The notes under the pieces were generated by a model. It was given only the letters and a program-made list of their open reading frames with translations. It was not told where the DNA came from and searched no databases. From assembly GCA_033065855.1 (NCBI GenBank), contig JAVXUO010002247.1:1-64000 (forward strand): a stretch of 64,000 nt of DNA, written 5' to 3'. This document shows positions 33,637-61,942 of the stretch, one piece after another. Within the stretch, counting starts at the first letter, position 1. Every line of letters starts with the position of its first letter. The stretch comes from Escallonia rubra. Its lineage: Eukaryota; Streptophyta; Magnoliopsida; Escalloniales; Escalloniaceae. The position numbers and the translations under genes were made by a program.

Positions 33637-33869
33637 TCTACGGACTCACCTTATAATCTTTTATGAGTCATCAAGTCTGTGGATGTTATATTTGAATTAT
33701 AGATTTTGTAATAATCCTGTGATAATCCTAGATGTTTATTCATACTCAAATTTGATTTACCATTGGGTTATTCATGAACTGTGTTTCTTCACCATCTGAA
33801 TTGTAATGTACTTTTGCAGTGACTAGTTTAGCATTGTAGAAACATTCACATCCAACATTTAGAAATTTT

Positions 33870-34548
33870 TTGGCTCTTTTAACCGTCTGTCGCTAGATAA
33901 TGTAGCAGACAGTTGGGCAGAAACATTGACCTCCAACACTTAGAAAAATTTTGACCCTTTAATCCTCCGTCAGATAGTCTAGCGGACGGTTGGGCAGAAA
34001 CGCTGATCTCTAACATTTAGAAAAAAATTTGGGCCTTTTAACTGTCCACCAGATAATGTAGCGGACGGTTGGGCAGAATCATTGACCTTCAACACTTAGA
34101 AAAAATTTGGCCATTTTAATCGTCCATCAGATAATGTAGAGGACAGTTGGGCAGAAACATTGACTTCCAACACTTAGAAAAAATTTGGCCCTTTTAACCG
34201 TCCGCTAAATAATATAGCGGACGGTTGGGCAGAAACACTGACCTCTAACACTTAGATTTTTTTTTTTTGGCCCTTTCACCGTCCGCCTGATAGTCTAGTG
34301 GACGGTTGGGTAGAAACACTGATCTCTAACACTTAGAAAAAATTTGGTCTTTTAACTGTCGCTAGATAATGTAGCAGACAGTTGGGCAGAAACATTGACC
34401 TCCAACACTTAGAAATTTTTTTGCCCTTTTCACTGTTCGCTGGACGGTTGGGCAGAAACACTGACCTCTAACACTTAGAAAAATTTGGCAGTAATTTTCT
34501 CAGTTTGCTCAACCGTTCGTTACACTATGTGGCGAACAGTTGAGCAGA
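33870..34548 (-). repeat. 78-bp tandem array of MULE A, about nine units
   Basis: GTTGGGCAG (or variant) recurs at about 33912, 33989, 34068, 34146, 34224, 34305, 34381, 34447 and 34539, mostly 76-81 bp apart. Each unit has an inverted pair such as GTCCGC...GCGGAC around a short A/T-rich loop, plus CTAAGTGTT on the minus strand. Read on the minus strand the unit is homologous to the 78-bp unit of MULE B at 49.0-50.1 kb (GGGCC, A-tract, CTAAGTGTTGG, TTCTGC, palindrome). In both elements it lies 3' of the ULP gene in the same orientation relative to that gene. Confidence 0.9.
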
Positions 34549-39940: not shown

Positions 39941-42387
39941 ATTGAGGGGTGAAAGATCAGGCATACCAGAAGGAAGTTGTAGACAGTCTAGAGCAACTGT
40001 TGACGGCGGCTGAAAATCACGATTTGGCGCGCGGCCGCGGTGGCAGAGGCGGAGGCGTTAAGGGCATGATGAGCAGCGATTGTGGCGGGGCGGGTAGAAT
40101 ATGGCAGAAGATTGTGATTGGCAACAAATCTGGGCATGATTTAGCGGAAGCAACGAATCTGGGCGAAAGAGAGACAGAGGAAAGAATGGCATTTGTAATT
40201 GGCAATAGCTGGGAAGTGACCAAAAATTAAAGACGAAAATGCAATTAAGGGCTTTTTTTTTTACTAAATATTTAGCGACGGCCAAAATCGGTCGCTAATT
40301 TAGCGACGGCAACGATAGTCGCCAAATTCAGTCGCTAAAGCCAAATTTTCGTTGACCATTAATCTTTAGCGACCGCGAAATAGAGCAATCGCTAAATTGG
40401 TCGTTAAACTAAACTTTAGCTACCGCATGTTTTGGCGATCGCAAAATGCGGTCGCTAAAGCCTCTGTTTCTTGTAGTGAATTCCCTCACTCACCCCCGAA
40501 GTCTGTCCCGAGGGATCACCAATTCCCTCGCTCACATGGAAAGGATGCCACGAGGGATAATCCATTCCCTGGTTCATGCCCGAAGGCTGTCTTGTATAGC
40601 GGCTCACAAACTCCCCGCAGCCATACACCAAGATCTCAGAATAAGAGCTAAGATACGCTCCCATGGCATCTAGCAGATCCTTCCGCTGACTCAATTTCTT
40701 GAAGAAGGCAAGCAGAGGCATCAACCTACATCCAATTAGATCATAAGTAACTTTAAACGCGAACGAGATTAAATGCAAAACTTACGAGATCAAATTCAAT
40801 TAAAAGTCATTAAGAAACTTACGAGCTCAAATGCTCTACGCTCATCAATTTGACTGGTATTTCTTGCAGCTTGTCCACTGCACTGTGTCTATTCTCTTTC
40901 GAGTGATGCGGTAGTACCACCCCAGATACTGCTCGATGCTGACCACAAGGTTGGGCTCTGACACAACGACTGTCAGCATGTCTCGCCAAGAATCCCACAT
41001 TTCAAGTTCAGCAATGCACAATTCGAGTGCATTCACCTGACTGAACCGTATGATATCCAGTGGGTTCTTGTTAACCTTCATGCCAGGGGCATCAACTGGC
41101 AACTGTTTCAGGCACTCAAAATGGCGCATCACGCGATCCGATAGTTGATACTCTGTGATCTTCCAATGGATCAACGGAGTGCGTTGCAACCCAAAGAGCT
41201 TAAATATGAACAATTGTGCCCGTACGGTGCCCGAGACATTTGACCCAGAGACAGCAAGCCAAACTCGCCCCCCCCCTCTCCGATAGAATACAATGTTGTG
41301 ATGGGGATCATCTCTCCTCAAGTAGTGACTCTCCCTCTGACTGTACTCCCAAGCGCGCAATCGAGGCCACACATTATCGGTTCCCTCCCGACAGTTGGGT
41401 ACGCCGACACTTAAGTGTTCATAAGACTACACCTGAGAACAAAGACAAATTAGGGTTGTATGGTCAAAATTTATTGTGCACAGACTAATAAAAAAATATA
41501 AAAAATGTAACAATGTGGGACATGCACATATAACTTTGCAGTCAAGCTCATTCCCTTGTGCAATGCGCGATACAAGTATGCAAGTGTAGCTGCACCCCAA
41601 GCATACTCCCCAACCTCTTACATGTTACCCAACAAAGTTAAATTTTTGTATTGAACCATGTTCTTTATCGGCGTTGGGAATATAATTTCCCCCTCACCCA
41701 CAGCAGGAATAAATCCTTTGTGTGCAGCATAAGCATCTCCTCCGTGTAGTTTTTCGGCAAAAACTTAAAGTTTTCTACCAACCACTTCAACTTTATTCCA
41801 CAATGCCCAAATTCATTCTTGGGTATCGGACCAAAAAAGTCCCTAGCAACTCTGTTATTTGTTGTGGAAATCCTAGCAAAAATAACTCAGCGTCACGTCA
41901 CGGGTAACCTTAAGATGTACCCTACATCTTCTAAGGTTATTGTCATCTCTCCAAGAGGGAAGTGAAATGTTTCACTTCTCCACCGTTCAACAAGAGCACC
42001 TATTAAGGTCCAATTAAGTTGCTAAAAGATATTTCCATAAGTAAAGAACCCAATACCCATTCCATGTAGCAATTTTTTCTGTGTTTTGTTCAACCGCCAC
42101 TCCGGATTTTTTGGTTACTTCTACTGTGATAAGTGTTGTTCTTTCCTACGAATTAACAAAGACTATTTAAGTAAAGCAAAAGGTATACAATGTTCATGAG
42201 ACTAAAAAAATAAACAAAAGATAAGTATCTTACTTATCCATTCCAGATGGATGTACTGGTTTGAGTGGTCGTATAATATGGAGGGATCTTCTGGTTCAGG
42301 GTTAAAGGCCATTTTTTACAACTGAAATTATGCAAAAACATCAAGTTCGGGAGTTTCTATCAAACGTTGGCAAATTGCCAACGCTAG

Positions 42388-43540: not shown

Positions 43541-44509
43541 GCTAGCCTCACGCAACTTGCGTGAGGCTAGCGGCCAAAATGACGTAGTTTTGGGAAAAAC
43601 ATATGTAGTCTTTTTTTTTTCTTTTTTCCTATTTCTCTCAGTCCCTATTTTCCTTTCCTCCGCGTCTTTCTGCCGGGCCCTCGCAAGCCACACCCACCGT
43701 CAACCATCACCGCCACAACCTTCTTGCGCAGGCCACCATCACCCAATTTATTTCCCTCGTTTTCTTTCTCTCCCTTTTCCCCGTTTTTCTTCTCTGATTG
43801 ATTCTGGGTTGCTGAGTTCAACCCGAATTAGTGTTCAAAGTTCATGACAAAACCCATTGAAAACTCTGATTGATTGCTGGGTTGGGTCTCGTTTAGAGGC
43901 AAAGCAAAACCAAAAGGCAAATAATCTTTATGGCTTCCCTTCTGCCAATAAAATTTGATTTAAGAACCCAAATGAACATTGACCAAGGTTCTCTCTGCTG
44001 AAGAAATGAAACTCAGTCACGCCAAAATCTATGGCAGTGATTAGTGACGGTGGGTTTGGTGGTGGCCGGCGCAAGAAGGTTGGGCGGTGATGGGCGACGG
44101 TGGGTGTGATGGTGGCCGGCGCGGTGGCTTGTGACTGTGTTTTGTCTGTGGTGTTGGCGGTAACTATCGCGGCAGGAGGATGATTGTCGGTGGGCGTGAT
44201 GACGGCAAGGTGGGGCGGTGATTCGTGACGGAAGCTGGCTCAGGAAGGTTGGGTAGTGGGTGCAGGAAGATTGGGGAGTTGATTGAGGAAGGTTGGGCGA
44301 CGGCGGAAGGTTGGGAAGTGGTTGCGGTGGCGGGTTTTGAGGGCCCGACAGAGAGACGCAGAGGAAAGGAAAACAGGGACCGAGAGAAATAGGGAAAAAG
44401 GAAAAAGAAGAAAAAAAGACTACATATGTTTTTTTCCAAAACTACGTCGTTTCGGTTGCTAGCCTCACGCAAGTTGCGTGAGGCTAGCGTTATATTCGCT
44501 TCTTTCCCC
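43541..44509. mobile_element. Palindromic-end element 1 (long TIR, non-autonomous)
   Basis: Both ends carry the 31-bp palindrome GCTAGCCTCACGCAAGTTGC and its completion, then AAAACTACGTC..., GACTACATATG and a polypyrimidine tract (43541-43680 and 44350-44509), giving TIRs of well over 100 bp. On the right the TIR extends outward as ATATTCGCTTCTTTCCCC next to (TA)n; on the left this outer 20 bp is missing, cut by the hAT-like element. The interior is GGTGG/CCACC-rich and encodes nothing I recognise. Confidence 0.8.
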
Positions 44510-44532
44510 TATATATATATATATATATATAT
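44510..44532. repeat. (TA)n at left edge of MULE B
   Basis: About 11 TA repeats lie between the palindromic-end element and the first base of the MULE B TIR. A matching (AT)n lies at the right edge, so any target duplication is hidden in the repeat. Confidence 0.95.
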
Positions 44533-44829
44533 GGAGCTGATCCGTTGAGAGCGTTAGCAAAATAGGAGAAGTTGCAAGCGCGATCTGACCGTCTATCCTG
44601 AGAGATGGACGGCCCAGATCGCGCCTTTTTCCAAAACTGTCAGTCGTCCGCCATACAGTATCGCAGACGGGCCTTTTTACCTTTTTGCCCCTCCGTGTCT
44701 GTCCGCTACACTGTTTGGCGGACGACATTAAAGTCCTGATGAGAGACAGCAAAAAGACGTCTGCGATACTGTGTAGCAGACATCCCTAGGCTGAGACCTG
44801 TCAGGGCCCGTCCCGTCGGTCCTTTTCGG
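44533..44829 (+). repeat. MULE B left TIR
   Basis: It matches the complement of 57006-57294 almost base for base for about 290 bp. It contains an inner inverted pair (GCGCGATCTGACCGTC...GACGGCCCAGATCGCGC around a second small stem) and three GTCCGC- or GTCTGC-type palindromes near 44648, 44700 and 44758. Confidence 0.93.
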
Positions 44830-44867
44830 CAATGACGATTATCTTGTCCTTATCTGTCATGTCAACA

Positions 44868-44962
44868 GTGTCCGCTACAGAGTGTAATGGACGTTATAGC
44901 CATCCGCGATACTGTATCGCGGACGTAATAGCCATCCGCGATACACTATTGCGGACGTTCAA
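44868..44962. repeat. Subterminal palindromes of MULE B, left side
   Basis: Three further stems of the GTCCGC/GCGGAC family (for example ATCCGCGATACTGTATCGCGGA) lie just inside the left TIR. They match the stems in the TIR and arrays. Confidence 0.85.
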
Positions 44963-45119
44963 TATACTTTCAAACGACAGTAACTTCGACACTCTTCTCC
45001 ACTCCTTCTACTCATAAAATTTTTCAGCGGCGTTGGCAAGCATATCGGTGCAATTCCGTCTTAAGAACACCTTTAATACTCTAAATCGATCACGTAAATT
45101 CACAAAATCTATACTTTTT

Positions 45120-45490
45120 TTTGTTTGTAATCGATAGTTGTGATGAATATTGCGTTTTATATATCTATGTTTTTGTTCATGTGCTAGCGTTTGTAAAATT
45201 TGATTCCGTATATGTATATATATCTATTATACACATGAGTACATATGCTAACATTGTATGCATTCTTTGCATGTGCTTGCATTATATGTAATATGCATGT
45301 GCTAGCTTTCGTTTGTAATCGATAGTTGTGATGAATATTGCGTTTTATATATGTATGTTTTTGTTCATGTGCAAGCGTTTGTAAAATCCAATTCCGTATA
45401 TGTATATATATTTATACATATGAGTACATATGCTAACATTGTATGCATCATACATGTGCTTGCGTTATATGTATTATGCATGTGCTAGCG
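45120..45490 (+). repeat. Tandem duplication upstream of PMD-ULP (2 x about 185 bp)
   Basis: The segments 45120-45308 and 45309-45490 share 'TTTGTAATCGATAGTTGTGA', 'GTATGTTTTTGTTCATGTGC', 'GAGTACATATGCTAACATTG' and 'TATGCATGTGCTAGCG', with few differences. They end about 80 bp before the start codon, so they probably form the promoter and 5' leader of the PMD-ULP gene. Confidence 0.9.
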
Positions 45491-45572
45491 TCGTATTTTT
45501 GCGAGCGATTATCAAAATTTAAAACGTAAAATCCAAACTGAGAAGGTTTTTTCATAATTTCAGTTGCAAAAA

Positions 45573-48500
45573 ATGAAATTTAACCCTGGACCAGAAGACC
45601 CATCCGTGTTATAAGACCAAGCCAACCATATCAGTATGCTCATATGGGATGGTGGAGTAAGATACATTATTTATCGACTTTCTTAAAATTACGAACGTTG
45701 TATATACCGTTTGTTTTGCTTAAATTGTATTTATTAAATCGTAGGAAAGAGAACTTCTCAACACCGTAGAAGTATCTCGCGAGTTCACATCGTGGAAACT
45801 GAACACCGCCCAGAAGAGGATACTGCGTGGAATTGGGTTTGGGATTTTCACGCATGGGCAGATATTTCAACAGCTTGACCGGGCCTTGATAGGTGCCCTT
45901 ATTGAGAGGTGGAGAAGTGAAACGAATACGTTTCACTTCCCGCTCGGAGAGATGACAATTACCCTAGAAGATGTAGGGTTCATCTTAGGGTTGCCGGTGA
46001 CGGGGTGGCCGGTAATTGCTCCTCCGTCAGAAGCAACGAATAAGAGAACCGCTAAGGACTTCTTAACTTCAATACCCCATGATCAATTTAGCAGTGGTGG
46101 TATCAAGTTGAAGTGGTTGGTAGATACCTACGGGGTTTTGCCGGAAAACTATACGGGCCGTGACCTTGTGCTGTACACACAAGCCTTCCTCTGGTGGGTG
46201 ATGGGGGCAATATTATTCCCAACAACGTCGAAGAACACGGTCAGCGTGAGATATTTACCGTTGTTGGGTAACCTGGCTGAGGTTGGAGATTATGCATGGG
46301 GTGCAGCGGTTCTTTCGTATCTGTACCGAGCATTGCACAAGGCAACGAGGCTCGACTCCAAAGCCATATGTGCATGTCTCTCGCTATTGCAGGTATATCA
46401 TATAAATCCTGTCTTCGTTATTCTTTTTTTTTTTGTTTTTGTTGAATCGACGATATAAATATAATTTGCCCATGTTCTCAGGTATGGTCTTATGAACACA
46501 TTGCTCCCGGTGCACCAACGCATAGGGATGGAACCGATAGAGTGTGGCCTCGGTTGCGTGCTTGGGAGTACAGCCGGAAGAATAACCACTACCGCAGGAG
46601 AGTCGATCCCCATCACAACATCACGTACTATCGAGGGGAGTTCGACCGCCTATCTCCGGGCCAATTGCGTTGGGCACCGTACATGCGTTTGGCGCGACGG
46701 GTAGAAGAGTCGTTCGTCTTCACGCTCTCCGGGTTACAGCCACACCCCTCATCCACTTCGAGGTCGTAGAGTGGCAGCTGCTAGGCCGAGCAATGGGCCA
46801 TTTTGAGTTGGAACAGGGTTTGCCAGCCGGTGCCCCAGATATGAGGGTTAACAGGGACCCACCGGATGTCGGGCGGTTTGGCAAGGCCAATGCGCAAGAA
46901 TTGTGCGCGGCCGAACTAGAGCTCTGGACTTCTTGGCAGGACACACTGGCGGCCATCGTCTCGGAGCCGGACCCCGTTATCAGCATCGAACAGTACGATG
47001 ACTGGTACTACCGCATCACGCGGAGGAGAGTAGCCCCAGTGAACTTTGAACGCGGGGAGAGGTATGCGCCTAGGGGTCAGATCGACGAGCGTATGGCATA
47101 CAATCTCGTAAGTTGCCCAACTAGTCTGACTTGTCTTGAATGTGTTGAATATAAATGTCTGATTAAAGTTACTTATTTGTTATCTCTTTGGATGTAGGTT
47201 AATGCCTCGCTTGCATTCTTCCAGAAGTTGAGTGAGCGGAAGGATCTGATGAGTGCAATGGGCGAGGATCTTCGCCAACAGGCTGCTGCACTGGCTTTAG
47301 GCTGCGGGAATTTTGTGCGGCAAGCATCGGGACAGTCTTCGGTCGACAGCCCGGGAATGGGTTATACGGGTGTCAGCCCGTATAACGTTGATCCCCGTGG
47401 GCAAGCTTCGGGGGTGAGCCAGGGAGTTGGTGGTCTCTCGGTGCCGGGGATGGGACATGCTCAAGCGTCGTGGCCCGACCCCAGCGGCCCGACCTGCAAT
47501 TTGTTCCCGGACTCCCAACCACTCTCTCAGCGTCAAGTCACGCAACGCTGGCCTTGCGGTTCCACCCAGGCACCGCCCCTTGTCGCGTGGACGGCCCCAC
47601 TTGGCGGCCCCGAGAGGCAATAACAGCCGGCGGGAGAAATGGCCGGCGAGCAATATCAGCCGGCCGGGGCCCCCGAAGGCGATTATTATCAGCCGGCCGA
47701 TCCGTTGGTTGGAGGCCAATTTCTTCCGTTGCTCTTGCCCCCCGGCGGAGGGCAAGAGCAACCGGTCGACCCCCGAGGGCAATATCCGAAAGGGCATCCA
47801 GCCAGGCCCCTGAAGCCGCATAAACATGACCTAATCCAAGCCCATTATTTTAGTGGGCCCCCCCCAGACGGAGCGTCATATGACATGTATCACCCGCATG
47901 GCTTGGATTACAATGCCTCGTGGAGAGAACTGTCCTCGCTGGCGCCCAGAATTTGGTTAGACAACTTTTTCATCTCGCACTACGTGCAAATTCTGAGGCA
48001 AAGGAGTCGGGAGCAGCCTAACTACGGTCCGCGCATTTTTATCCTCGATGCTTACTTTCATGACATGCTAGTACAAGAGTATAACGACTGGGACAAGGTG
48101 AGGAAGCAGGCGAGAAAGGGGGATGCCCAGCTCCAGTGGAGACCGTCTGCTAACCTACAAGCATATCTTGCTCGGCCGAGTCCAGTGAGCACGGGTGTGG
48201 CGGAAGTGTTTCTAATCCCAGCTATAGTGAATGCCCACTGGTTCTTGGTTTGCTATGAACCGGTAACGAATACCGTATCAGTCCTCGACAGTCTCTACGA
48301 TGATACCCCCGTGATGGGTGTGATTGAAATGTACCGAGGCTTAGGCCAGTTGGATGCCATGGTAAGATCCTGTTTACTTCTTATTGTAACTTGCATATTG
48401 TAGAACTGATTAATCTTATTATGTTTGCTATGTTTAATGTTTAATGCTTATTATGTTTCTCGCAGAATCTATTTGCTGCCATGGTCAATAGTAAGCGTCG

Positions 48501-48798
48501 TCGAGAGAGTCGAAAGAGTCGAGTGAGGGGACCGTGCGAAACGCAGCTTGTTCTCCGATTGAAGAGGAGTAGGCCCAGGCAACTTAATTCCTTTGACTGC
48601 GGCGTCTTCGTTTGCGTGTACATGGATTACATCTGTCGGTCTGAGAGCCTCAAGAAGACTGTCTGGAGCCAAGAATGCATAGACAACTTTAGGTATAGGA
48701 TGGCTTGGCAAATTATCAATGGCCGGCCTAGAGCTATTAGATTTACTGTAAATCCGTGTAACGAGGGGGATCCCGCAGGGGCTGAGGGCCCCAATTAA
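45573..48798 (+). pseudogene. PMD-ULP gene of MULE B: plant mobile domain fused to C48 cysteine protease
   Basis: Exons are about 45573-45656, 45744-46392, 46482-47107, 47198-48361 and 48466-48798, all with GT/AG introns. The plant mobile domain covers the first three exons (from 'FNPGPEDPSVL' through 'LGEMTITLEDVGFILGLP' and 'WPRLRAWEYSRKN' to 'DDWYYRITRRR'). A Gly/Pro/Gln-rich linker with QYQPAG-like repeats follows. The Ulp1-type protease then shows 'NAHWFLVCYEP' (His), VLDSL (Asp), 'RQLNSFDCGVF' (Gln and nucleophile Cys), so the catalytic set is complete. Three lesions break the frame: TAA at 45612 (where MULE A has TAT), a one-base loss near 46737, and TAA at 47621 in the linker. Ulp1 enzymes remove SUMO-like tags; a role in the element's own proteins is inference. 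It converges on the transposase gene. Confidence 0.9.
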
Positions 48799-49019
48799 CA
48801 ATGTTTGCGTATAATAACATTATATTCACTTTTTTAATTGTCCTTCAACTTCTTGAATCTTATCGTTGAATGCGATTGATGATTTCATTTGTGTTGACTG
48901 AAAAGTGATCGTTGTTGAATGCGATTGATTTGATTCACTGATATCGTTGTGTTGTTGATCTGAGTGTTTGATTTGTTCTGTGTGATTTGCTTTGATCAGG
49001 GGGAAACAAAGTGTAAAAA

Positions 49020-50130
49020 CCAAGTGAGACTGTTTCTGCTTGACCGTCCGCTATATAGTAAAGCGGACATAGATAGGGCCAAAAAAAACTAAGTGTTGGG
49101 GACTCTTCCTTCTGCTTGACTGTCCGCTACATAGGGCCCAAAAAAACTAAGTGTTGAGGACTCTTCCTTCTGCTTGACTGTCCGCTATATAGTATAGCGG
49201 ACATAGATAGGGCTGAAAATAAAACTAAGTGTTGGGGACTCATCCTACTGCTTGACTGACCGATATATAGTATAGCGGACATAGATAGGGCCCAAAATAA
49301 AACTAAATGTTGCTGACTCTTCCTTCTGCTTGACTGTCCGCTATATAGTATAGCGGACATAGATAGGGCCGAAAAAAAAACTAAGTGTTGGGGACTCTTC
49401 CTTCTGCTTGACTGTCCGCTATATAGTATAGCGGACATAGATATGGCCGAAAAAAAAACTAAGTGTTGGGGACTCTGTCTGTCCGCTATATAGTATACCG
49501 GACATAGAGAGGGCAAAAAAAAAAACTAAGTGTTGGGGACTCTTCCTTCTGCTTGACTGTCCGCTATATAGTATAGCGGACATAGATAGGGCTAAAAATA
49601 AAACTAACTGTTGGGGACTCTTGCTTCTGCTTGACTGTCGGCTATATAGTATAGCGGACATAGATATGGCCGAAAAAAAAACTAAGTGTTGGGGACTCTT
49701 CCTTCTGCTTGACTGTCCGCTATATAGTATACCGGACATAGATAGGGCCGAAAAAAAAACTAAGTGTTGGGGACTCTTCCTTCTGCTTGACTGTCCGCTA
49801 TATAGTATAGCAGACATAGATAGGGCCGAAAAAAAAACTAAGTGTTGGGGACTCTTCCTTCTGCTTGACTGTCCGCTATATAGTATAGCGGACATAGATA
49901 GGGCAAAAAAAAAACTAAGTGTTGGGGACTCTTCCTTCTGCTTGACGGTCCGCTATATAGTAAAGCGGACATAGATAGGGCCAAAAAAAAATTAAGTGTT
50001 GGGGATTCTTCCTTCTGCTTGACTGTCCGCTGTATAGTATAGCAGACATAGATAGGGCCCAAAAAAAAACTAAGTGTTGCTGACTATTCCTTCTGCTTGA
50101 TTGTCCGCTATATAGTATACCGGACGTATT
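49020..50130 (+). repeat. 78-bp tandem array downstream of PMD-ULP, 15 units
   Basis: Palindromes start near 49046, 49122, 49180, 49258, 49336, 49414, 49481, 49559, 49637, 49715, 49793, 49871, 49948, 50025 and 50103. The period is 78 bp except for two shortened units. A unit reads GTCCGCTATATAGTATAGCG plus GAC, then ATAGATAGGGCC, an A-tract, CTAAGTGTTGGGGACTC and TTCCTTCTGCTTGACT. The array begins about 240 bp after the ULP stop codon. Because 78 is a multiple of three, long repetitive frames stay open on both strands (26-residue repeats); I do not regard these as genes. Confidence 0.96.
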
Positions 50131-50139
50131 ATTTTTTTG

Positions 50140-50800
50140 GTTTTCCGAGGAAAGGCCTATTCGCGCACACTTTAGCGCCAAATTCATAACTTGCGAAAAA
50201 TATTGGAATTTTTTTTGTCACTTTTTTTTGGCTCATTGCCCCTTAGGCACGCTATATAAGCCCATTTCTATGAATTTTGGCAAAAATCGCGACAAATTAT
50301 TTTTTGATTTTCCTATTAAGGGCCCATTCGCGCACATTTTAGCGCCAAATTCATAGCTAGCGAAATATGTTGTAATTTTTTTTTGCTCATTGCACATTAG
50401 GCATGTTACTTAGGGGACTCTTCCTTCTGCTTGACTATCCGCTATATAGTTGGGGGACTCTTTCTGTTGTGATGTCCGCTTTACTATATAGCGGACATGC
50501 ATAGGACAAAAGAAAAATCAAGGTTTGGAAGGTCCCAATTATAGTATGGCGGATGTAGTTAGAAACATAAATTCCCAACATTTTACATGCTCCAAAAGAT
50601 GGGATTCGCTAATTAGAATGACATGTGGATAAGTGCCAGTTGGAATGAAATCCTAACAATGCAGTAGGAAGAGATATATATATCACTCTTCATTTGACAT
50701 ATACTCATCAGATAAGTACTGATCATTGGTTAAAATATTGTTTCTCTCGTTTGATTTGAGCTGCCTCCCACTAGCCTCGGCCATTTTTTCCGCAAGTTGA
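50140..50800. repeat. Direct repeat pair and isolated array-like units
   Basis: Segments 50149-50235 and 50325-50410 share 'ATTCGCGCACA', 'TTTAGCGCCAAATTCATA', 'GCTCATTGC' and 'TTAGGCA', about 170 bp apart. Two isolated palindrome units follow (near 50437 and 50472). The remainder to 50800 is AT-rich and non-coding. Confidence 0.75.
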
Positions 50801-50811
50801 AGCATGTAAAA

Positions 50812-51117
50812 TTATTTTCTTCGCAGTAATTTTCGGTTTTTCTCCTTACGTATTTGGCGCACTGCTTTCTTACACTGCTTAACATTACGCCTCGACATAC
50901 TAAGTGAACGACGTTGCGGCACAGGTGCCCTCAGCGTGGTGAGATCTTGGTGTAGTGCTTCTGATTCCTCAACTCGATATGCCCATTCTCTCCGTAAACC
51001 GCAATAATACTCTCTCGGGTCCGTGTACTTCACTTCTTTGTAGTCGTCGTTCCTTTCACACAACAACCACACAGTCTCGTGTCCCTGCAGACTAGAACTC
51101 CCAGGAACTCCTGCCAT
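50812..51117 (-). CDS. Small basic ORF of MULE B, function unknown
   Basis: An open frame of 101 residues starts at ATG 51117 (MAGVPGSSSLQGHE) and ends in a strongly basic tail (SRRNVKQCKKAVRQIRKEKN, then RKLLRRK). The middle part has 'EYYCGLRREWAYRVEESEAL' and is likely helical. I do not recognise the family. It faces away from the plus-strand ORF at 51503 across a 385-bp gap holding AT-rich TATA-like words, as in a divergent gene pair. Composition is less biased than in the neighbouring arrays. It could be an element-encoded accessory protein or a captured host fragment. No equivalent is left in MULE A. Confidence 0.5.
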   Translation of the reverse strand: MAGVPGSSSLQGHETVWLLCERNDDYKEVKYTDPREYYCGLRREWAYRVEESEALHQDLTTLRAPVPQRRSLSMSRRNVKQCKKAVRQIRKEKNRKLLRRK

Positions 51118-51502
51118 TTAACTTAGGCGGTTCTAATGCGATGAGCATGGCTAACATATATAAATAAGCCCACACACACATACACGATATATTGGTGTGA
51201 TAGCTACACAATAGTCTGTCCATCTCTGGTGACAAGACAAGTCTCTGGACATTGAAGATGACAATAGTTGGAGACAATAACATGCCCGTGTCATAAAGTT
51301 GACAAGTCTTTGGTGACAAGACAAGTCTCTTCTTGCACAAGACAAGTCTCTAGTCTATTGCAGAGGCTTGTCACATCTCATAAAGTTGAACCTGTAGCAT
51401 CTCATAAAGTGGTCCCGTTTCAAAGTATATATAAGTACATGCATTGCACGAAGGGCAAAGGGCATAGAGTGATATACTCCCAATTTCATAACAACTCTAG
51501 AA
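51118..51502. promoter_or_regulatory. Putative divergent promoter between two small MULE ORFs
   Basis: A TATATAAG box at about 51426-51434 lies some 70 bp before the plus-strand ATG. On the minus strand ATTTATATATG (about 51155-51165) lies about 40 bp before the ATG at 51117. The middle contains several direct and inverted copies of GACAAGTCTCT (51235-51345) and a repeated CATCTCATAAAGT (51375 and 51399). Promoter function is inferred. Confidence 0.4.
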
Positions 51503-51934
51503 ATGTCATATACTCCACGAGATATTTTTGAAGCAATGGGTCGTTACTGGGCGGGCGAAAATGAATTTCACTATTCTTTGCGTCCAAGTTTGCGTTACTC
51601 ATCAAGCTATGTTAATATATTACGTGCAGAATAGTCTTATCGGATGAATGAATATGAGGTCTTAGTAGCTGATTCACGGAGCATGAATATACCCATACCT
51701 CGACAAAAGGCAATCAACATGCCTCGAATTACGCACATGGAGCTTGAAAGGGCACTGCATCGAATACGTGAAGAAAATAATAGAATGAGAGTTCGTCAAA
51801 GTAGGCATAACTTACGTCGTATGGCACGTGATGCACATGAAGATGGCAATAACAATGAAGCACATGTATACTGGAACATGAGCTTCGAACTAGGATCTGT
51901 TTTCGATGCTCCACTTTCAGATGAAGATGACTGA
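51503..51934 (+). pseudogene. Second small ORF of MULE B, one internal stop, function unknown
   Basis: From ATG 51503 the frame reads MSYTPRDIFEAMGRYWAGE and continues 'FHYSLRPSLRYSSSYVN' to an in-frame TAG at about 51632. It then carries on in the same frame with 'MNEYEVLVADSRSMNIPIP', 'ITHMELERALHRIREENNR', an Arg/His-rich stretch and an acidic end (DAPLSDEDD). The total is 143 codons with one stop. The second part has a probable amphipathic helix or coiled coil. I do not recognise the family. Translation could start again at ATG 51644, giving 96 residues. It pairs divergently with the minus-strand ORF at 50812-51117. Confidence 0.5.
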
Positions 51935-51955
51935 AGATCAAGTTCTTCTAAGGCT

Positions 51956-52262
51956 ATAAGACCTCCGCTTAGGCCGGGGTTCGGGAAGGTCGGAACTAAG
52001 TGTCTGGTCCGTGCCAACCATTTTTTGGTCCAAGTTGCAGACAATGATCTGCACCACTATGACGTGAGATCCTCAGCTGTCCACTATATAGTATAGCGGA
52101 CAGCCCCGCAGAATACATGAACAAGCAGAAAGGTGCACAGCTGAGGATCTTACGTCATAGTGGTGCAGATCATTGTCTGCAACTTGGACCAGAAAATGGT
52201 TGGCACGAACCAGACACTTAGTTCCGACTTTCCCGAACCCCGGCCTAAGCGGAGGCCTTATG
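51956..52262. repeat. Foldback: 125-bp inverted arms, 56-bp spacer
   Basis: Left arm 51956-52080 and right arm 52137-52262 are complementary with only a handful of mismatches (both carry CCTCCGCTTAGGCC / GGCCTAAGCGGAGG at the outer end and CCTCAGCTGT / ACAGCTGAGG at the inner end). The 56-bp spacer begins with another member of the GTCC...GGAC palindrome family. A transcript through it would form a long near-perfect hairpin RNA. Confidence 0.95.
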
Positions 52263-52285
52263 TCTGCTATATAGTAGAGCTAGAC

Positions 52286-52394
52286 GTTGTAGCGTAATGC
52301 AGTTTTAATAAATTGGCGCCCGAAGACTTGTTTTAGCGACATTGTAGCATAATGTTGTTTTAATAAATTGGCACCCGAAGACTTGTTTTGGCGA
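52286..52394 (+). repeat. Tandem duplication of about 55 bp
   Basis: Two adjacent copies share 'GTAGC(G/A)TAATG', 'GTTTTAATAAATTGGC' and 'CCCGAAGACTTGTTTT'. Confidence 0.85.
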
Positions 52395-52550
52395 CAGAAT
52401 CAACAATCTCAATATCGATAAACAATAAATAACGTACGATTCACAATCAACGATCTAAATATATAGAGGGAATCTCAAACGGCACAATTAAGCGAGAAAA
52501 AATTTGGAAACATAATGAATAAGAACATAAATTCTTTTATTAATAATAAA

Positions 52551-53029
52551 TTAGGGTTCACATTGGGGGAAAGAAATTTTTTCACAAGCGCTCCGATCAA
52601 AGATTACAACTTGAAAAGCCCACTACCCAAGGTGTTCAAACACTACAAAGTCCGAGGCCATGCTGGCGCACGAAGACGGTCCAACCCTTTGCGACGGTCC
52701 AACCCTTTGCGAATTGCTTTTTTTGGGGTCAGCCGGGCTTCAGCTTGATTTCAACCTGCCATGCCCCCTTGCGGCTATATAATCTTGCACTGTCATGAAT
52801 TGTTGTAAATTGATTGGTAAAGGCTCCCGCTATGTCCTAACAAACACAATACAAAAAATAGGTTAGTTTTTAACCAAAAGATCAAACTTTTAACAGACAA
52901 AAATACAGAGAAAGAGGGATGGACTACAAGTTCATTCTCAAACCCCGGCATCATGACTTTGAAAAAGTGTTTGCCTGCCAGGTGCAAGTTGCCAATAAAA
53001 TCGTAGGTGGTCTCCGATCCAGAAGCCAT
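52551..53029 (-). pseudogene. Captured B3-domain protein gene inside MULE B
   Basis: The minus strand starts at ATG 53029 (MASGSETTYDFIGNL) and encodes the parts of one plant B3 DNA-binding domain in order. First comes 'HFFKVMMPGFENEL' (about 52965-52924). After an AG acceptor near 52840, 'FTNQFTTIHDSARLYSRKGA' and 'WQVEIKLKPG' follow. Next, 'GWTVFVRQHGL' (about 52685-52650), then in a shifted frame 'DFVVFEHLG', 'FQVVIFDRSACEKISF' and a TAA at 52551-52553. The pattern FFKV, W-V, GW-F--HGL, D-LVF, F-V-IF--S-CEK is the B3 fold. Frame breaks, a stop, and a duplicated GCAAAGGGTTGGACCGTC show decay. It is probably a host transcription-factor gene fragment picked up by the transposon. Confidence 0.8.
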
Positions 53030-53223
53030 CGAGGTCGGCGTTGAGGGGAGGACGGTGGTATCGCCGGAGTTAGTTGTCGCCGGAGATGTGGGTCACCGGA
53101 GATGTGGGTCGCCGTAGATGGGGCAGCCGGCCTGGGTTAGATGTTCGAGACAGAGAGAGTGCCCTCAGCGGACTGATAACAACTGATTGCCCGATATGAT
53201 TAATATATATAATAGGATAGAGT

Positions 53224-53700
53224 TATCCGCTACATTGTATAGTGGGCGTAAAAGAATACAAAAAGATTTTCTGCGATGAGGTCCGCTACATTGTATAGCG
53301 GACATAAAAGAAGGTATCAAGTTTTTCTGCGATCACGTCCGCTACATTGTATAGCAGACACAAAAGAAGGTATCAAGTTTTTCTGCGATGACGTCCGCCA
53401 CATTGTATTGCGGACATAAAACAAGACCAAAAGTTTTTCTGCGATTCCGTCCGCTACCTTGCATAGCGGACATAAAACAAGGCCAAAAGTTTTTCTGCGA
53501 TTCCGTCCGCTACATTGTATAGCGGACATAAAAGATGACCAAAAGTTTTTCTGCGATGACGTCCGCCACATTGTATAGCGGACATAAAACAAGACCAAAA
53601 GTTTTTCTGCGATTCCGTCTGCTACATTGTATAGCGGACATAAAAGAACAAAAATTAGGGCTCTGCATATCCGTCCGCTACATTGTATAACGGACAGGGC
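53224..53700 (-). repeat. 56-bp tandem array downstream of the transposase, nine units
   Basis: Palindromes start at 53225, 53281, 53337, 53393, 53449, 53505, 53561, 53617 and 53673, an exact 56-bp period. A unit reads GTCCGCTACATTGTATAGCG plus GAC, then ATAAAA, CAAGACCAAAAGTTTTTCTG and CGAT. The array begins about 140 bp beyond the transposase stop codon (53838). The unit differs from the 78-bp unit outside the palindrome. Confidence 0.96.
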
Positions 53701-53837
53701 TGACAAAAAAAAAAAAAAACTAAAGACTTTAGATTTGATTTCATGGCCTCTCATAGGTCCATCAGAAAAAAATTCCAGTATTCGGTTGAAAAATTATTAT
53801 CGAAAAATTATTACAAATGTCAAACTTATACAAAAAA

Positions 53838-56299
53838 TTAAAGGTCCACTGCAGCTTGTTCGTCCTCATCTTCGGCGTCATCTTCTTCCCCGTCTTGCAA
53901 ACCCCCTGAACTTATCCCCAGTGCCTTGTAATGGTTCCGCTTGTCGTGGTCGGTCATTTTGTTGCACAATGCACACCTTCGCAGCTTTTTAGGTTGAGTT
54001 GCCGTTTCAATAGAGCTTTTCATCCGCGTAGATCTCTTGCGGCCTTTCGTTTGTAATATAATTGGATCCAACAGCCAGATATCATTGTCGTCTTCCTCCC
54101 CCGGCTCGTCATCTTCTGACCCCATCGTAGGCTCGGTGTCAACCGCATTGGTGACGGAAGCTGCTTCCAACTGGTCGACGATGGGCTCTTGCTGCTGAGC
54201 TACCTCGAGGAGATGTTTATAACCGACCATTGTAGCAGCAGCCTTTACGGACAAACGGGTGAACATTGTCACCAGATGATTATACCGCAACGTCTCCAAT
54301 TCTTCAAAGTCAGTATACGGGTGCTCCGGAAAAGCAATGGTACCGTGCAACATGTTAGCACCTTTCGTCCACCGTGGCAAGACGTATTTATCGGGGATTG
54401 TCCTGATATTCTTCTGAGTGAAAAATTGCAGAATGTGTCTACACAGGATTTCGTGGAACTCAAACTTCTTGCAAACACATGTCACCGAGTCCGTCAATGT
54501 GTCGTGGCTCACCGTATACATTCTGCGCAGCTTCTCAGGAAGAGATCATTCACTAACGAATAAACCTTGTACTCACGCGTAGACTTTTCTACCACCTTGT
54601 TTATACAGTATCGTCCCAATGTCTGCAGCTCTACTTGGTATAGCAAGAATATCTCCTTCGTATAGACTTTGGCACCGTTCAGCTCCAGCGGGGTCTCAAG
54701 CAACCTTCTCCTCTGTTTGTATGTGGTTGCAAAGTCTGCAGCCCTTTCTTTCACGAACAACGACGCAACCGCTTTCTGTGCGGATGTGACGAAACTCTTC
54801 AAATTGGTAGCTGTACCCACGTAACTATCGAACGTGGCATTCATAGATTCACTCATGCCCGTCATTTTCATGCCCGCAGAAAAATGCCTCCTCGTGTAAA
54901 TGCCAATCCATTGCTCTTTGAGCTCGTACAAGTGCTGGAGTCACCCGTTGTCTTGCAATGAGTAATCCTCAACAAGCTTTTTCCACCTCTCCTCAAATCA
55001 CTTGAGCGAGGCTGTGAACGACAAAAGCTGATCGAATCAAACCAAAATCAAACTCGAGAGTTATTTGACCCGACGGTCAAATTAGAGAGTCAAATGACGT
55101 CCATCAAACTTAATCTAAGTTTCACTGTTTAAGTTGACAAGTGTATCGCAACTGATGCGTTAAGGTTTAAGAATCGTTAACGACTTGCTAACGCACGTGT
55201 CAAAATCCTGTTTAAAGTCTGAAAACTTTGCGTACACGTGATGCAAACGTTCGGGGTATTTGTTGCTTATGTGCCAAGTGCACAAGTTGTGTCGAGTATC
55301 TAGGAAGACGGTGGCAATAGCCTTCTTCATTGTCAAATCTTGATCGGTGATGATAACGTCGGGTGCTTTAAAGTTCATGGCTTCCAGCCACGCCCTAAAC
55401 AACCATTCAAAAGAACTCTCGCTCTCGTCCCTTAACAAGGCGAACCCGAACATGATGGAGTGATAATGATGATTGACCCCCGTGAAAGGGGCAAACGGCA
55501 TCGAGTACTTGTTGGTACGGTATGTGGTGTCGAAAGTCACGACATCCCCAAAATGCTTATAAGCAAGCCTCGAACGACCGTCGACCCAAAAAATTGTGCT
55601 AACTCGATGCTCGTCGTCAAGTTTATAATCGAAGGTAAACTGTGGGTCCTCCATCTGCATCCACTTCAATAGGCTCATTGTGGCTTGAGCATCATTGATG
55701 TCATACGCGGCTCGTCTATGGGTTTGGACCGCGTTACGAAAGTATATCGTGTTAAAGTTTAAATTTTGAATCCCTCCGGCCTGTTCCGCAAGACCATTTA
55801 TCACGTCGGTAGGTCCTCGCCGCGCATCGCTCATTGTGTGAATTAGGCTCTTCGCGACCTTACCCATCTTCTTGTGTTGATGCATCTGACTCACCTTAGA
55901 AGGGGTTACTAACGGGTGATTGTGTGCCAGTTCCAGGCTGCTAATAAGCCAATGATCTTGCTTGGCTTTATAGCTTACGAACATCTTGACCTGGCAATTC
56001 GTTCGCGCAAAGAAGTCCCGTCTTCTGCGCGAATATCCTATTTCGTCATCACTGTCCTCGTTGCCTACGCGTGTCTCATTTTGCACTGGGTTTCTGCCCC
56101 TATGGCACTCGTATAAGCGAGAGCATATCTTTTTCGTTATGTTGCTCATTCTTGAAGTCTTTATTCTAATGCCAAATCCAACCCTCAATGAATACGCTCG
56201 GAAACATTCTCCAGCTTCCTCCAATGTTTGAAAGGTTCATCCTAGATACAGATCATTAGCATTTACGGGGGTGTTGGCGCTCGACACGAAATCAGACAT
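53838..56299 (-). pseudogene. MULE/FAR1-type transposase of MULE B
   Basis: From ATG 56299 (MSDFVSSANTPVN) the frame meets a TGA after YLG (about 56238). It then continues as a FAR1-type DNA-binding domain ('EEAGECFRAYSLRVGFGIR' to 'LELAHNHPLV', about residues 25-135). The MULE transposase domain follows: 'HFGDVVTFDTTYRTNKYSMP' (first Asp), 'GFALLRDESESSFEWLFRAW', 'VIITDQDLTMKKAI' (second Asp) and 'HNLCTWHI'. After a 172-bp insertion (55000-55171), the helical region, SWIM finger (CVCKKFEFHEILCRHIL) and a CALCNKMTDHDKRNH zinc-knuckle-like tail with an acidic end complete it. A one-base loss near 54545 also breaks the frame. The protein would bind the TIRs and cut them; FAR1/FHY3 light-signalling factors are domesticated relatives. 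Confidence 0.93.
55000..55171 (+). mobile_element. 172-bp insertion in the transposase, with 4-bp flanking repeat
   Basis: The insert begins ACTTGAGCGAGGCTGTGAAC and ends ...GGTTTAAG. AATC occurs directly on both sides (54996-54999 and 55172-55175). An almost identical 172-bp segment (about two mismatches) lies at 61771-61942 with different flanks. The MULE A transposase lacks it. Ends CTTGAGC/CTTAAAC are weakly inverted. Superfamily not identified. Confidence 0.8.
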
Positions 56300-56309
56300 T
56301 GTGAAACAC

Positions 56310-57000
56310 GACCTATGTAGAAATATAGAATACGCTTAACAATCAAATCACGTTTTAAACTGAACATATTAACTAAACATGATCTTGACGAATAGACAAA
56401 TTTAAGATGACAAATATACCATGTACATAATCTCAAAAGTCTCCCATTTTGCTAACTATAGATTTTTCGGCAATGACAAATTCATCATGCCAAAATTACT
56501 AAGATAAATAGACAAATTCATCATGCCAAAATACAACAAACGTATCTCAAAAAATTCGAATTTAAATAGGATAAATGTGCCGAAGTTAGTGCCCCTCAAA
56601 AAAATCAAAATTAACTACAATAAACTTCTTTAAAGTTAACAAATTAATTTCTAGAACATCACAAGTTGATGAATAGAGTGACAAATTTCTAGAACATCAT
56701 CAAAAATCTATAATTTTTTGCTGAAAAAAATATATACTTTATCAGTCAATCCACCCAAAAAATATTTGAGATCAGAAACTTACCTTGCTTGACTGAAGAA
56801 GATTGAAACAAGTTTTACTCGAAGCTTGAGGGGAGTCGAAAATGGAAGCAAGTGAATCCGAAGGAGAAGAAAATTTTGCCGAAATAGTTGAGAATTAAGG
56901 AACTCCGGGGTATATGGGAAGAGACGTCCGCAATACTGTATAGCGGCAATTATTCCCGACACTGACACGTGCAGAAATAAAGACCTGACAAGAGAATCTC
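56310..57000. promoter_or_regulatory. Transposase upstream region and inner right end of MULE B
   Basis: AT-rich non-coding sequence between the transposase start and the right TIR, presumably its promoter and leader. A duplicated 'GACAAATTCATCATGCCAAA' lies near 56476 and 56512. A truncated stem of the terminal palindrome family (GTCCGCAATACTGTATAGCGG) is near 56926. Confidence 0.45.
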
Positions 57001-57005
57001 TTCCT

Positions 57006-57294
57006 TTTCGACGGGATAGGCCCTGACAGGTGTTAGCCTAATGACGTCCGCTACACAGTATCGCAGACGTCTTTATGCTGTCTCCCATCAGGACTTTAAT
57101 GTCGTCCGCGATACTGTATCGCGGACAGGCGCGAAGGGGCAAAAAGGTAAAAAGTCCCGTCCGCGATACTGTATGGCGGACGACTGACAGTTTTTGAAAA
57201 AGTCGCGATCTGGGCCGTCCATCTCTCAGGATGGACGGTCAGATCGCGCTTGCAACTTCTCCTATTTTGCTAACGCTCTCAACGGATCAGCTCC
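57006..57294 (-). repeat. MULE B right TIR
   Basis: Inverted counterpart of 44533-44829, ending ...CTCTCAACGGATCAGCTCC. It contains the same inner stem (GATCTGGGCCGTCCATC...) and three GTCCGC-type palindromes. Confidence 0.93.
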
Positions 57295-57295
57295 C

Positions 57296-57321
57296 ATATA
57301 TATATATATATATATATATAT
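57296..57321. repeat. (AT)n at right edge of MULE B
   Basis: About 12 AT repeats between the MULE B TIR and palindromic-end element 2. Confidence 0.95.
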
Positions 57322-58605
57322 GGGGAAAGCGAATATAAGGCTAGCCTCACACAAGTTGCGTGAGGCTAGCGGCAAAAACTACATAATTTCAGCAAAAAAA
57401 AAAGGAGGTCAGATTTCAGTCAATTCCACACACCCCCCCCTCTCTTTTCTCCTCGCCGTCAGCCGTCAGTCTATCGCAGGCCCCAGTACCACCGCCCAAC
57501 CTTTCTTCCCAACCTTTTTTCACCGGCCACCGTCACCAATCCCGGCCACTACGTCACCAATCCCAGCCACCATCACGTCCACCGAGTGCCATCACCGCCC
57601 AACCTTCCTGCGCCGGCGACCATCACCAATCTCGGCCGGTGAACGCCCACCGAGACTCATCCTGCTGCCGCAACAGAAAATCGCCAACACCACGGAAACA
57701 TCGTGGCAAGCCACCGCAGCTTGCACCATCACACCCATCATCTCCAAAGCAGAAACCCGCCTTCACCTTCCTCCGTCACAAGCCACCACAGCCACCACCG
57801 CTGGAACAACCTTCTTCTTCCCACGACCCCCACGCCCACCATCACAAGCAATCACCTCCTTATAGGAACCCAGCACTACCGCCGGCCACTTCACAGAGCC
57901 AAGCAGCACAATCCCTGTTTATGCTCTGATTGATTAAGTTGATGATGTGCCGTTGCGAATAGGTGGAGTGCTTGAAGGCTAGCCTCCGTCGCCGGGCAAT
58001 TCCATCGTGAGTACGACAGCAATTGGTGCTAGATTTTGACGCAACCAGACCACACACTACCTCACCCAATTCCCAGCTGCCGGTTACTCTCACAAACAAT
58101 TACATGACTCAACCACTTCCTGTGATGTCTTCCCCTACCAGATCTCAGTGTAATTACATGGCTCATAATGGAAGGACACCAATGGCTGCTCAAAGTTTTC
58201 AGTCGATTGAGGAAATTGCAGTCTCTTTCTCAACCACAAAGTCGGTCGCATCAACCAGCTAGATCTTTCCTTTACTTGGGTCTCACAAGCGTTGGTAAGG
58301 AAGAACTTACAAAGGGTCTTGCCGAGCATTTTGCAACTTCTGAATGGGCAGACACGGTGATCAAAATCAACTTGCGAGAATACTGTGAACTAAATTCATT
58401 TTTCCAGCAGATGGATAGAAAACTTTGGGCTTTCATCGTACATAACGTTGCTTTTAATATATTCCTTTTATTTAGTTGGGGATGGAAGGGGGGGGGGGGA
58501 AATTGACTGAAATGTGACCTCCTTTTTGTGTGCGCTGAAACTACGTAGTTTTTGCCGCTAGCCTTACGCAACTTGCGTGAGGCTAGCCTTATATTCGCTT
58601 TCCCC
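57322..58605. mobile_element. Palindromic-end element 2 (long TIR, non-autonomous, 1.28 kb)
   Basis: It begins GGGGAAAGCGAATATAAGGC followed by TAGCCTCACACAAGTTGC and GGCAAAAACTACATAATTTC. It ends with the complement, ...CTTATATTCGCTTTCCCC. The TIRs are about 110 bp and include the same 31-bp palindrome as element 1. TA repeats flank both ends. The interior (57480-58260) contains CCACC-rich Pro/Thr/Ser-type frames and an open stretch up to 58506 without known motifs. Confidence 0.88.
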
Positions 58606-58628
58606 TATATATATATATATATATATAT
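58606..58628. repeat. (TA)n microsatellite
   Basis: About 11 TA repeats between palindromic-end element 2 and a diverged MULE terminus. Confidence 0.95.
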
Positions 58629-58813
58629 GAGCTGATTCGTTGACTGCGCGGGCAACTTGGGTTAAGTTGCTAACGCGATCTGGTCATCCATACACGATCT
58701 GTGGACGGTACAGATCTTTTTTTTACGTTTTTAAGTACATCCGCTACATAATGTAGCAGATGTACTTTTTGACAAAAATAGCCTTTTTTTTCTTTCGTCA
58801 AATCTATTTCTCT
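58629..58813 (+). mobile_element. Diverged MULE terminus (MULE C fragment)
   Basis: GAGCTGATTCGTTGACTGCG and 'AAGTTGCTAACGCGATCTGG' followed by a GTCATCCAT stem parallel the MULE B TIR (GAGCTGATCCGTTGAGAGCG, GAAGTTGCAAGCGCGATCTG, CCGTCCAT). A palindrome ACATCCGCTACATAATGTAG plus CAGATGT matches the internal stem family. The sequence is cut by a CACTA end at 58814. Confidence 0.8.
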
Positions 58814-58925
58814 CACTACAAGAAAGAGTCTTTCAGCGACCGCCACTAAATACGGTCGCTAAAGCATAATTTAACGACCTTATTCGCGACCGCAGAAGGG
58901 ACGGTCACTAAATCCCAGTCAAAAT
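58814..58925 (+). mobile_element. CACTA left terminus with subterminal repeats
   Basis: CACTACAAGAAAGAGTC starts at 58814, followed by GCGACCGCCACTAAATACGG, GGTCGCTAAAGC and more GCGACCGC/GGTCACTAAA motifs. No matching right terminus was found before the window end, so the element is either truncated or runs out of the window. Confidence 0.85.
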
Positions 58926-61680: not shown

Positions 61681-61770
61681 CGAGGGTGTGAAACGAGACA
61701 AGCTCTCTAATCACACCGAAACTAAGCTCGAGAGTTATATGACCCAACGATCAAATCAGCGGGTCATTGC

Positions 61771-61942
61771 ACTTGAGCGAGGCTGTGAACGACAAAAGCT
61801 GATCGAATCAAACCAAAATCAAACTCGAGAGTTATTTGACCCGACGGTCAAATTAGAGAGTCAAATGACCTCCATCAAACTTAATCTAAGTTTCACTGTT
61901 TAAGTTGACAAGTGTATCGCAACTGATGCGTTAGGGTTTAAG
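61771..61942 (+). mobile_element. Second copy of the 172-bp element
   Basis: Nearly identical to 55000-55171 with the same start and end. TTGC occurs directly on both sides (61767-61770 and 61943-61946). A diverged related stretch (GACAAGCTCTCTAATCACAC, GCTCGAGAGTTATATGACCC) lies just upstream at about 61695-61766, so the locus may hold an older partial copy in tandem. Confidence 0.75.

What the first reader, a model, noticed from the sequence alone, without database searches (positions are those of the whole stretch)
44640..57190. One palindrome family links TIRs, subterminal DNA and both arrays
Stems of the form GTCCGC...GCGGAC with a 9-11-base A/T-rich loop occur several times in each TIR, inside the left end (44868-44962), once per unit in the 78-bp and 56-bp arrays, in the foldback spacer and in the MULE A array. 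The rest of the two array units is unrelated, so the palindrome itself seems to be what is kept. It could be the transposase binding site, a titration array, or an RNA hairpin.
Basis: partly seen in the sequence, partly recalled or inferred. Interest (0 to 1): 0.8.

Follow-up and report, generated by a model that had tools for sequence, protein, structure and literature searches.

The report
Paired binding-site palindrome in jumping genes
A short mirror-image DNA word is repeated at both ends and beside both genes of a plant jumping gene, and about twenty thousand exact copies lie across the genome; it looks like the docking site for a protein that the jumping gene makes itself.

Summary
The palindrome is real and far above chance, but its shape was misdescribed. 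It is a strict 23-bp dyad: two half-sites GTCCGCTAYAY, inverted around one centre base. There are 35 sites in the element against 0.17 expected from shuffles. Genome-wide, exact GTCCGC-N11-GCGGAC occurs 19,579 times (reversed control 2) and the N10 form 33 times (control 4). The element (44533-57294) is a Mutator-like transposon with a FAR1/MULE/SWIM transposase gene and a convergent plant-mobile-domain plus C48 (Ulp1-like) gene. Dyads lie in the TIRs and in tandem arrays just past the 3' end of each gene. Relatives without these genes still carry dyad clusters. In 33 TIRs, 97 of 99 dyads survive; the recognition positions vary less than most shifted controls. The half-sites vary nearly independently, which favours a protein dimer site over a hairpin. 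Best reading: the FAR1-domain transposase binds the TIR dyads, and the arrays are extra docking sites that regulate or protect the element, as VANC target arrays do in Arabidopsis VANDALs. No binding was measured; the PMD-C48 protein is the main rival binder.

The parts
44533..44818 (+). Left TIR with dyads at 44646, 44701, 44759
44870..44956 (.). Left subterminal dyads at 44870, 44902, 44934
45745..48798 (+). Second gene in several open pieces: plant mobile domain (PMD) and C48 Ulp1-like protease; holds no dyad
   Evidence: PF10536 E 3e-50 (45745-46458); PF02902 E 0.0018 (below the Pfam cut-off, 47624-48403) and 6.2e-7 (48445-48798); 0 sites
49046..50125 (.). Array 1: 14 dyads, unit mostly 78 bp, beginning about 250 bp after the C48 stop
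50474..50496 (.). Single exact dyad after array 1
52079..52101 (.). Dyad across the inner edge of the foldback (arms 51956-52084 and 52133-52261)
53225..53695 (.). Array 2: 8 dyads plus one more decayed unit (first), unit 56 bp, just past the 3' end of the transposase gene
53838..56236 (-). Transposase: FAR1 DNA-binding domain, MULE domain, SWIM finger; interrupted here by a 173-bp repeat at 54999-55171
   Evidence: PF03101 E 2.8e-14, PF10551 E 3.4e-30, PF04434 E 0.00027
56926..56948 (.). Decayed right subterminal dyad
57009..57294 (-). Right TIR with dyads at 57046, 57104, 57159
33838..34489 (.). MULE A array: 78-bp units, 4 dyads within 2 mismatches, between A's transposase remnant and its C48 tail

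Best explanation
The 23-bp dyad is a binding site for a protein encoded by the element, most likely the transposase itself. A dimer of its N-terminal FAR1 (WRKY-GCM1 class) zinc-finger domain would read two inverted GTCCGCTAYAY half-sites around one centre base. Clusters of dyads about 55 bp apart in each TIR would gather transposase at the ends for transposition. The tandem arrays just past the 3' ends of the two convergent genes would be extra docking sites at high density that act on the element's own genes or chromatin (autoregulation or anti-silencing) rather than in cutting. SHOWN: the sites, their strict spacing, their genome-wide number, lower variation at the recognition positions, persistence in relatives without the genes, and array size changes between copies. 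INFERRED: binding by a protein, that the protein is the transposase, dimerisation, and what the arrays do.
For: Strict N11 spacing: 19,579 sites against 33 with N10. Of 40,189 GTCCGCTAYA half-sites (control 426), 27,150 (68%) face an exact GCGGAC at the dyad distance. 97 of 99 TIR dyads are kept in 33 TIRs. Mean diversity at the 16 recognition positions per dyad is 0.061 against a shift mean of 0.098, with 3 of 255 shifts as low. Five loci without a hit to B proteins (L055, L056, L058, L059, L060) carry dyad clusters; in L058 and L060, which are copies of one kind, all 8 dyads lie in the TIRs and match the 12 outer bases exactly. The core is the same in copies whose C48 part is 51-68% identical to B while the transposase is 73-87% identical (A, C358, C1; partial matches), so the slower-changing protein is the better candidate. 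The transposase has a FAR1 DNA-binding domain. Host FAR1/FHY3 proteins form homodimers and bind CACGCGC (PMC6000157, passages).
Against: No binding data. The whole 23-mers are no less variable than the rest of the TIR (0.096 against 0.099 without the 30 ragged inner columns); only the recognition positions are. With the outer 12 bases alone the shift test is weaker: 16 of 255 shifts as low. The FAR1/FHY3 site CACGCGC differs from GTCCGC. The four B-type copies read across both ends (B, C1301, C893, C467) all have PMD, C48 and transposase matches, so the two possible binders were not separated. A slight excess of arm symmetry at positions 7 and 9 (P 0.0020 and 0.0025, not corrected for descent) is what base pairing would also give.
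Confidence: 0.55

Rival explanations
1. The dyad is the target of the PMD-C48 protein, a VANC/KIU-like anti-silencing factor that binds dense arrays and the TIRs to keep the element unmethylated and expressed.
For: Array anatomy matches VANC targets: short motif, non-coding DNA, tandem repeats that change size between copies (array 1: 14, 8, 8, 15 dyads; array 2: 8, 12, 6, 0 in B, C1301, C893, C467). VANC21 also binds terminal non-coding regions (PMC5735166, parts 1-3 of 6 read). Some VANC genes carry an Ulp1 domain (KIU; PMC13317346, passages). PMC5418596 (passages) speculates that PMD captured by MULEs serves anti-silencing. The C48 part changes faster than the transposase, as VANC does against VANA.
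Against: VANC specificity changes with the family, whereas here GTCCGC-N11-GCGGAC is kept in copies with C48 51-68% identical. Relatives without the gene keep the dyads in their TIRs, though they could be acted on in trans. Pfam finds no DUF1985 or DUF287, the VANC domains, in the pieces scanned.
Confidence: 0.25
2. The palindromes act as RNA hairpins in the 3' parts of the two convergent transcripts (stability, termination or small-RNA source).
For: The arrays lie just past the stop codons of both genes; each dyad can form a stem of about 10 bp.
Against: Arms vary nearly independently: 77 of 191 distinct sites lack symmetry at position 7, 82 at position 9 and 101 at position 11; only positions 7 and 9 exceed independence, slightly. 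The same dyads are in the TIRs of elements with replaced interiors.
Confidence: 0.08
3. The dyads have no function: a repeat born in a TIR or an array was copied by slippage and transposition.
For: Arrays change size between copies; transposition alone can raise copy number; the whole 23-mer is not less variable than the rest of the TIR.
Against: Recognition positions vary less than in 252 of 255 shifted placements while the inner positions vary more than the rest (0.176 against 0.099). Arrays 1 and 2, whose flanks are not significantly alike, share the dyad. 68% of half-sites genome-wide face an exact partner at one spacing.
Confidence: 0.1

Closest known systems
VANC target motif arrays of Arabidopsis VANDAL MULEs (PMC5735166, parts 1-3 of 6 read; PMC10398659, passages)
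   Same: A MULE whose own short motif is packed in terminal and internal non-coding DNA, often in tandem repeats that grow and shrink between copies.
   Different: VANC21's motif is a 9-base one arrayed in one orientation; here it is a 23-bp dyad, it also lies in long TIRs, it is shared by copies with a diverged second protein, and the arrays sit at the 3' ends of both genes. No DUF1985 was found.
KI-MULE / KIU (Kaonashi) elements with an Ulp1 domain (PMC13317346 and PMC2528002, passages)
   Same: Ulp1-like domain encoded opposite to the transposase.
   Different: KI-MULEs are described there as non-TIR; this element has 286-bp TIRs, a PMD and dyad arrays.
FAR1/FHY3 binding site CACGCGC of domesticated MULE transposases (PMC6000157, passages)
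   Same: FAR1 DNA-binding domain, homodimers, GC-rich core.
   Different: Different sequence; no 23-bp dyad in the passages seen.
MuTAnT MULEs of Medicago (PMC4486113, abstract and passages)
   Same: MULEs with long foldback TIRs that insert into (TA)n.
   Different: Passages seen describe one transposase ORF and no dyad arrays.
Subterminal motif repeats of CACTA (En/Spm) elements bound by TnpA (recalled, not read)
   Same: Short element-specific motif repeated near the ends, bound by an element protein said to act against methylation.
   Different: Another superfamily, shorter motif, subterminal.

Membership tests
Mutator-like element (MULE) | MULE transposase domain | tested here: met
   PF10551 E 3.4e-30 in the window, 9.7e-33 in copy L022
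Mutator-like element (MULE) | Long terminal inverted repeats | tested here: met
   286-nt arms, 92% complementary
Mutator-like element (MULE) | Target-site duplication of 9-11 bp | tested here: inconclusive
   Both ends lie in (TA)n, so a duplication cannot be read
VANDAL / VANC system | VANC-type protein with DUF1985 and DUF287 | tested here: not met
   Pfam scan of the gene pieces finds PMD and C48, and DUF7745 below its cut-off
VANDAL / VANC system | Element-specific short motif at high density in non-coding DNA and tandem repeats | tested here: met
VANDAL / VANC system | Protein binding to the motif and loss of methylation | not testable with these tools
   needs ChIP, in vitro binding or bisulphite data
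KI-MULE (Kaonashi) | Ulp1-like domain in reverse orientation to the transposase | tested here: met
   C48 on +, transposase on -
KI-MULE (Kaonashi) | No TIRs | tested here: not met
   TIRs present
FAR1/FHY3 binding site | CACGCGC core | tested here: not met
   half-site consensus GTCCGCTAYAY from 191 distinct sites

The most novel reading that the evidence does not exclude
One dyad serves two jobs. In the TIRs it is the transposase docking site. In arrays placed at the 3' ends of both genes, the same protein, or the PMD-C48 partner, keeps the element's genes free of silencing. That would make a single-site circuit in a TIR-bearing MULE, with some 20,000 exact sites across the host genome.
Probability: 0.3. 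Interest if true: 0.78.

Novelty: new variant of a known kind. Interest (0 to 1): 0.6.

Why it matters
Which protein a plant MULE uses to find its own ends and to escape silencing is known for few elements. Here one strict 23-bp dyad marks the TIRs, the gene 3' ends and relatives without the genes, with 19,579 exact copies. It is a ready-made probe: one in vitro binding experiment with two element proteins would separate a transposase site from a VANC-like anti-silencing target. If the transposase binds both places, transposition and self-protection would share one site.

Tried and rejected
REJECTED. (a) A 6-bp stem with a 9-11 base loop: the spacing is N11. (b) Homology of the 78-bp and 56-bp units beyond the dyad: a shared TTCTGC at the same offset looked suggestive, but the flank tests give P 0.049-0.47, so I keep 'not shown'. 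(c) RNA hairpin as the main reading. (d) A published dyad: a full-text search for four 8-mers of the motif found 47 papers with at least two of them; the 20 listed, seen as listing only, have titles about primers, vectors or unrelated genes, none about transposons. A search for palindromes in MULE TIRs with Ulp1 (listing) gave nothing closer. This is no proof that it is unpublished: most subscription papers are not held.

LED NOWHERE. No solved structure matched the transposase by sequence (E up to 1). I did not find a family with the dyad and provably no PMD-C48 gene, which would have separated the two candidate binders.

DROPPED BEFORE COUNTS. In one search, 6 of 197 distinct sites were left out because they lacked three of the four inner A/T positions, and the locus L020 was left out as a duplicate of the window. 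In one search, 4 of 32 subjects (L030, L032, L034, L047) gave no TIR match of about 230 nt or more; 26 TIRs came from the other 25 of the 29 loci L021-L049, 5 from three fetched copies, 2 from the window. The TIRs were picked by similarity to the window TIR and the transposase loci by similarity to its transposase, so they sample one family.
Full report
OBSERVATION. The window holds a Mutator-like element B at 44533-57294 with 286-nt TIRs, 92% complementary, set in (TA)n. GTCCGC-N11-GCGGAC with up to 2 mismatches in the 12 outer bases occurs 35 times in 44418-57410, against a shuffle mean of 0.17 and maximum of 2; outside it occurs 5 times, 4 of them in the MULE A array. Sites lie in the TIRs, subterminal DNA, two arrays, and once at the foldback; there is none in the PMD-C48 gene and one chance-like match in the transposase.

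SHAPE. The unit is a 23-mer, not a 6-bp stem with a variable loop. The array-1 form GTCCGCTATATAGTATAGCGGAC has 10-bp arms and a 3-nt centre. In the own genome (566 Mb, 3,222 contigs) the exact N11 pattern occurs 19,579 times (reversed control 2), the N10 pattern 33 times (control 4). The half-site GTCCGCTAYA occurs 40,189 times on both strands (control 426) and 27,150 of these (68%) face an exact GCGGAC at the dyad distance. One form, GTCCGCTACATWATGTAGCGGAC, accounts for 3,118 sites; in several listed contigs its sites come in two clusters about 1 kb apart.

HOST ELEMENT. Pfam finds PMD (E 3e-50) and C48 (E 0.0018, below the cut-off, and 6.2e-7) on the + strand, and FAR1 (2.8e-14), MULE (3.4e-30) and SWIM (0.00027) on the - strand. 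The genes converge and the arrays lie just past their 3' ends. A search with the transposase scored 114 of 3,635 candidates; identities of the listed matches are 93-95% apart from the window itself, and many have open frames of 770 or more residues, so the family was active recently. Three more copies read across both ends (C1301, C893, C467) keep the TIR dyads in the same order. Their arrays differ in size: array 1 has 14, 8, 8 and 15 dyads and array 2 has 8, 12, 6 and 0 in B, C1301, C893 and C467.

RELATIVES. MULE A in the window and a copy on C358 share the 78-bp unit outside the dyad as well (CTAAGTGTTGG, TTCTGC). Over the matched parts, the transposase is 73% (A), 83% (C358) and 87% (C1) identical to B, and C48 is 51%, 56% and 68%. 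Loci L055 and L056 and L058-L060 have no match to B proteins yet carry dyad clusters. In L058 and L060, two copies of one kind, the 296-297-nt TIRs are 97-99.7% identical and each holds four dyads exact in the outer 12 bases. L055 holds a phosphoesterase-family ORF (PF04185, E 1.4e-30), as in a gene-capturing MULE.

CONSTRAINT. In 33 aligned TIRs (32 subjects given, 4 without a long enough match), 97 of 99 dyads stay within 2 mismatches. Mean diversity is 0.046 at non-CpG and 0.090 at CpG recognition positions, against 0.125 and 0.141 outside; the inner variable positions show 0.176. A circular-shift test gives 1 of 285 shifts as low. Without the 30 ragged inner columns it is 3 of 255, and with the outer 12 bases alone 16 of 255. 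Against this, the whole 23-mer is no less variable than its surroundings (0.096 against 0.099). None of the 33 rows has a twin at 98% or more.

DIMER SITE OR HAIRPIN. Among 191 distinct sites (6 of 197 dropped), symmetry of the two arms matches independent half-sites at most positions. Positions 7 (114 against 100.8 expected) and 9 (109 against 90.9) show a slight excess, and position 11 none (90 against 98.4). 77 of 191 are asymmetric at position 7. A base-paired hairpin should show more. The test is not corrected for descent.

MECHANISM. I take the dyad as a protein dimer site. The FAR1 domain is a C2H2 finger of the WRKY-GCM1 class, and FHY3/FAR1 form homodimers and bind CACGCGC (PMC6000157, passages). 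The dyads are in the TIRs also where the element's proteins are missing, and the transposase changes less than C48 while the core stays the same; this favours the transposase. The arrays resemble VANC targets (PMC5735166, parts 1-3 of 6 read; PMC10398659, passages). The PMD-C48 gene resembles KIU genes in its Ulp1 domain and its orientation (PMC13317346, PMC2528002, passages), and PMD in MULEs has been proposed as anti-silencing (PMC5418596, passages). So a PMD-C48 binder stays open.

VERDICT. A real, genome-wide, geometry-strict dyad, most likely the binding site of an element-encoded protein. Known kind (TE-encoded proteins with their own motif arrays), new variant (23-bp dyad shared by long TIRs and 3' arrays of a PMD-C48 MULE). 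Binding and function are inferred.

Noticed in passing
44510-44532 and 57295-57320: The element sits in a (TA)n microsatellite; L058's right end is also followed by a TA run, as in MuTAnT of Medicago.
   Followed up: partly
44418-44534 and 57294-57410; also 43541-43706 and 58488-58760: Outside the TIRs lies another inverted stretch with the palindrome TAGCCTCACGCAANTTGCGTGAGGCTA (with small changes), found four times in the window; only some genome TIR matches include it. An older element or a longer TIR variant.
   Followed up: no
2316-2376, 8149-8175, 36054-36256, 40272-40309, 58854-58879: A second palindrome family, TTAGCGACGG/CCGTCGCTAA and its reverse, recurs in the window and directly after the C358 array.
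   Followed up: no
54999-55171 and 61770-61942: A 173-bp stretch 99% identical to one 6.8 kb away interrupts the transposase of B; copies with uninterrupted frames exist elsewhere in the genome.
   Followed up: partly
51956-52261: A foldback with 129-nt arms, 95% complementary, between the two arrays; part of it is inverted in C1301.
   Followed up: no
L055 3883-4563: Element without MULE proteins that carries a phosphoesterase (phospholipase-C-like) ORF between dyad-bearing inverted repeats.
   Followed up: partly
58739-58761: A third TIR fragment with the dyad-like ATCCGCTACATAATGTAGCAGAT.
   Followed up: no
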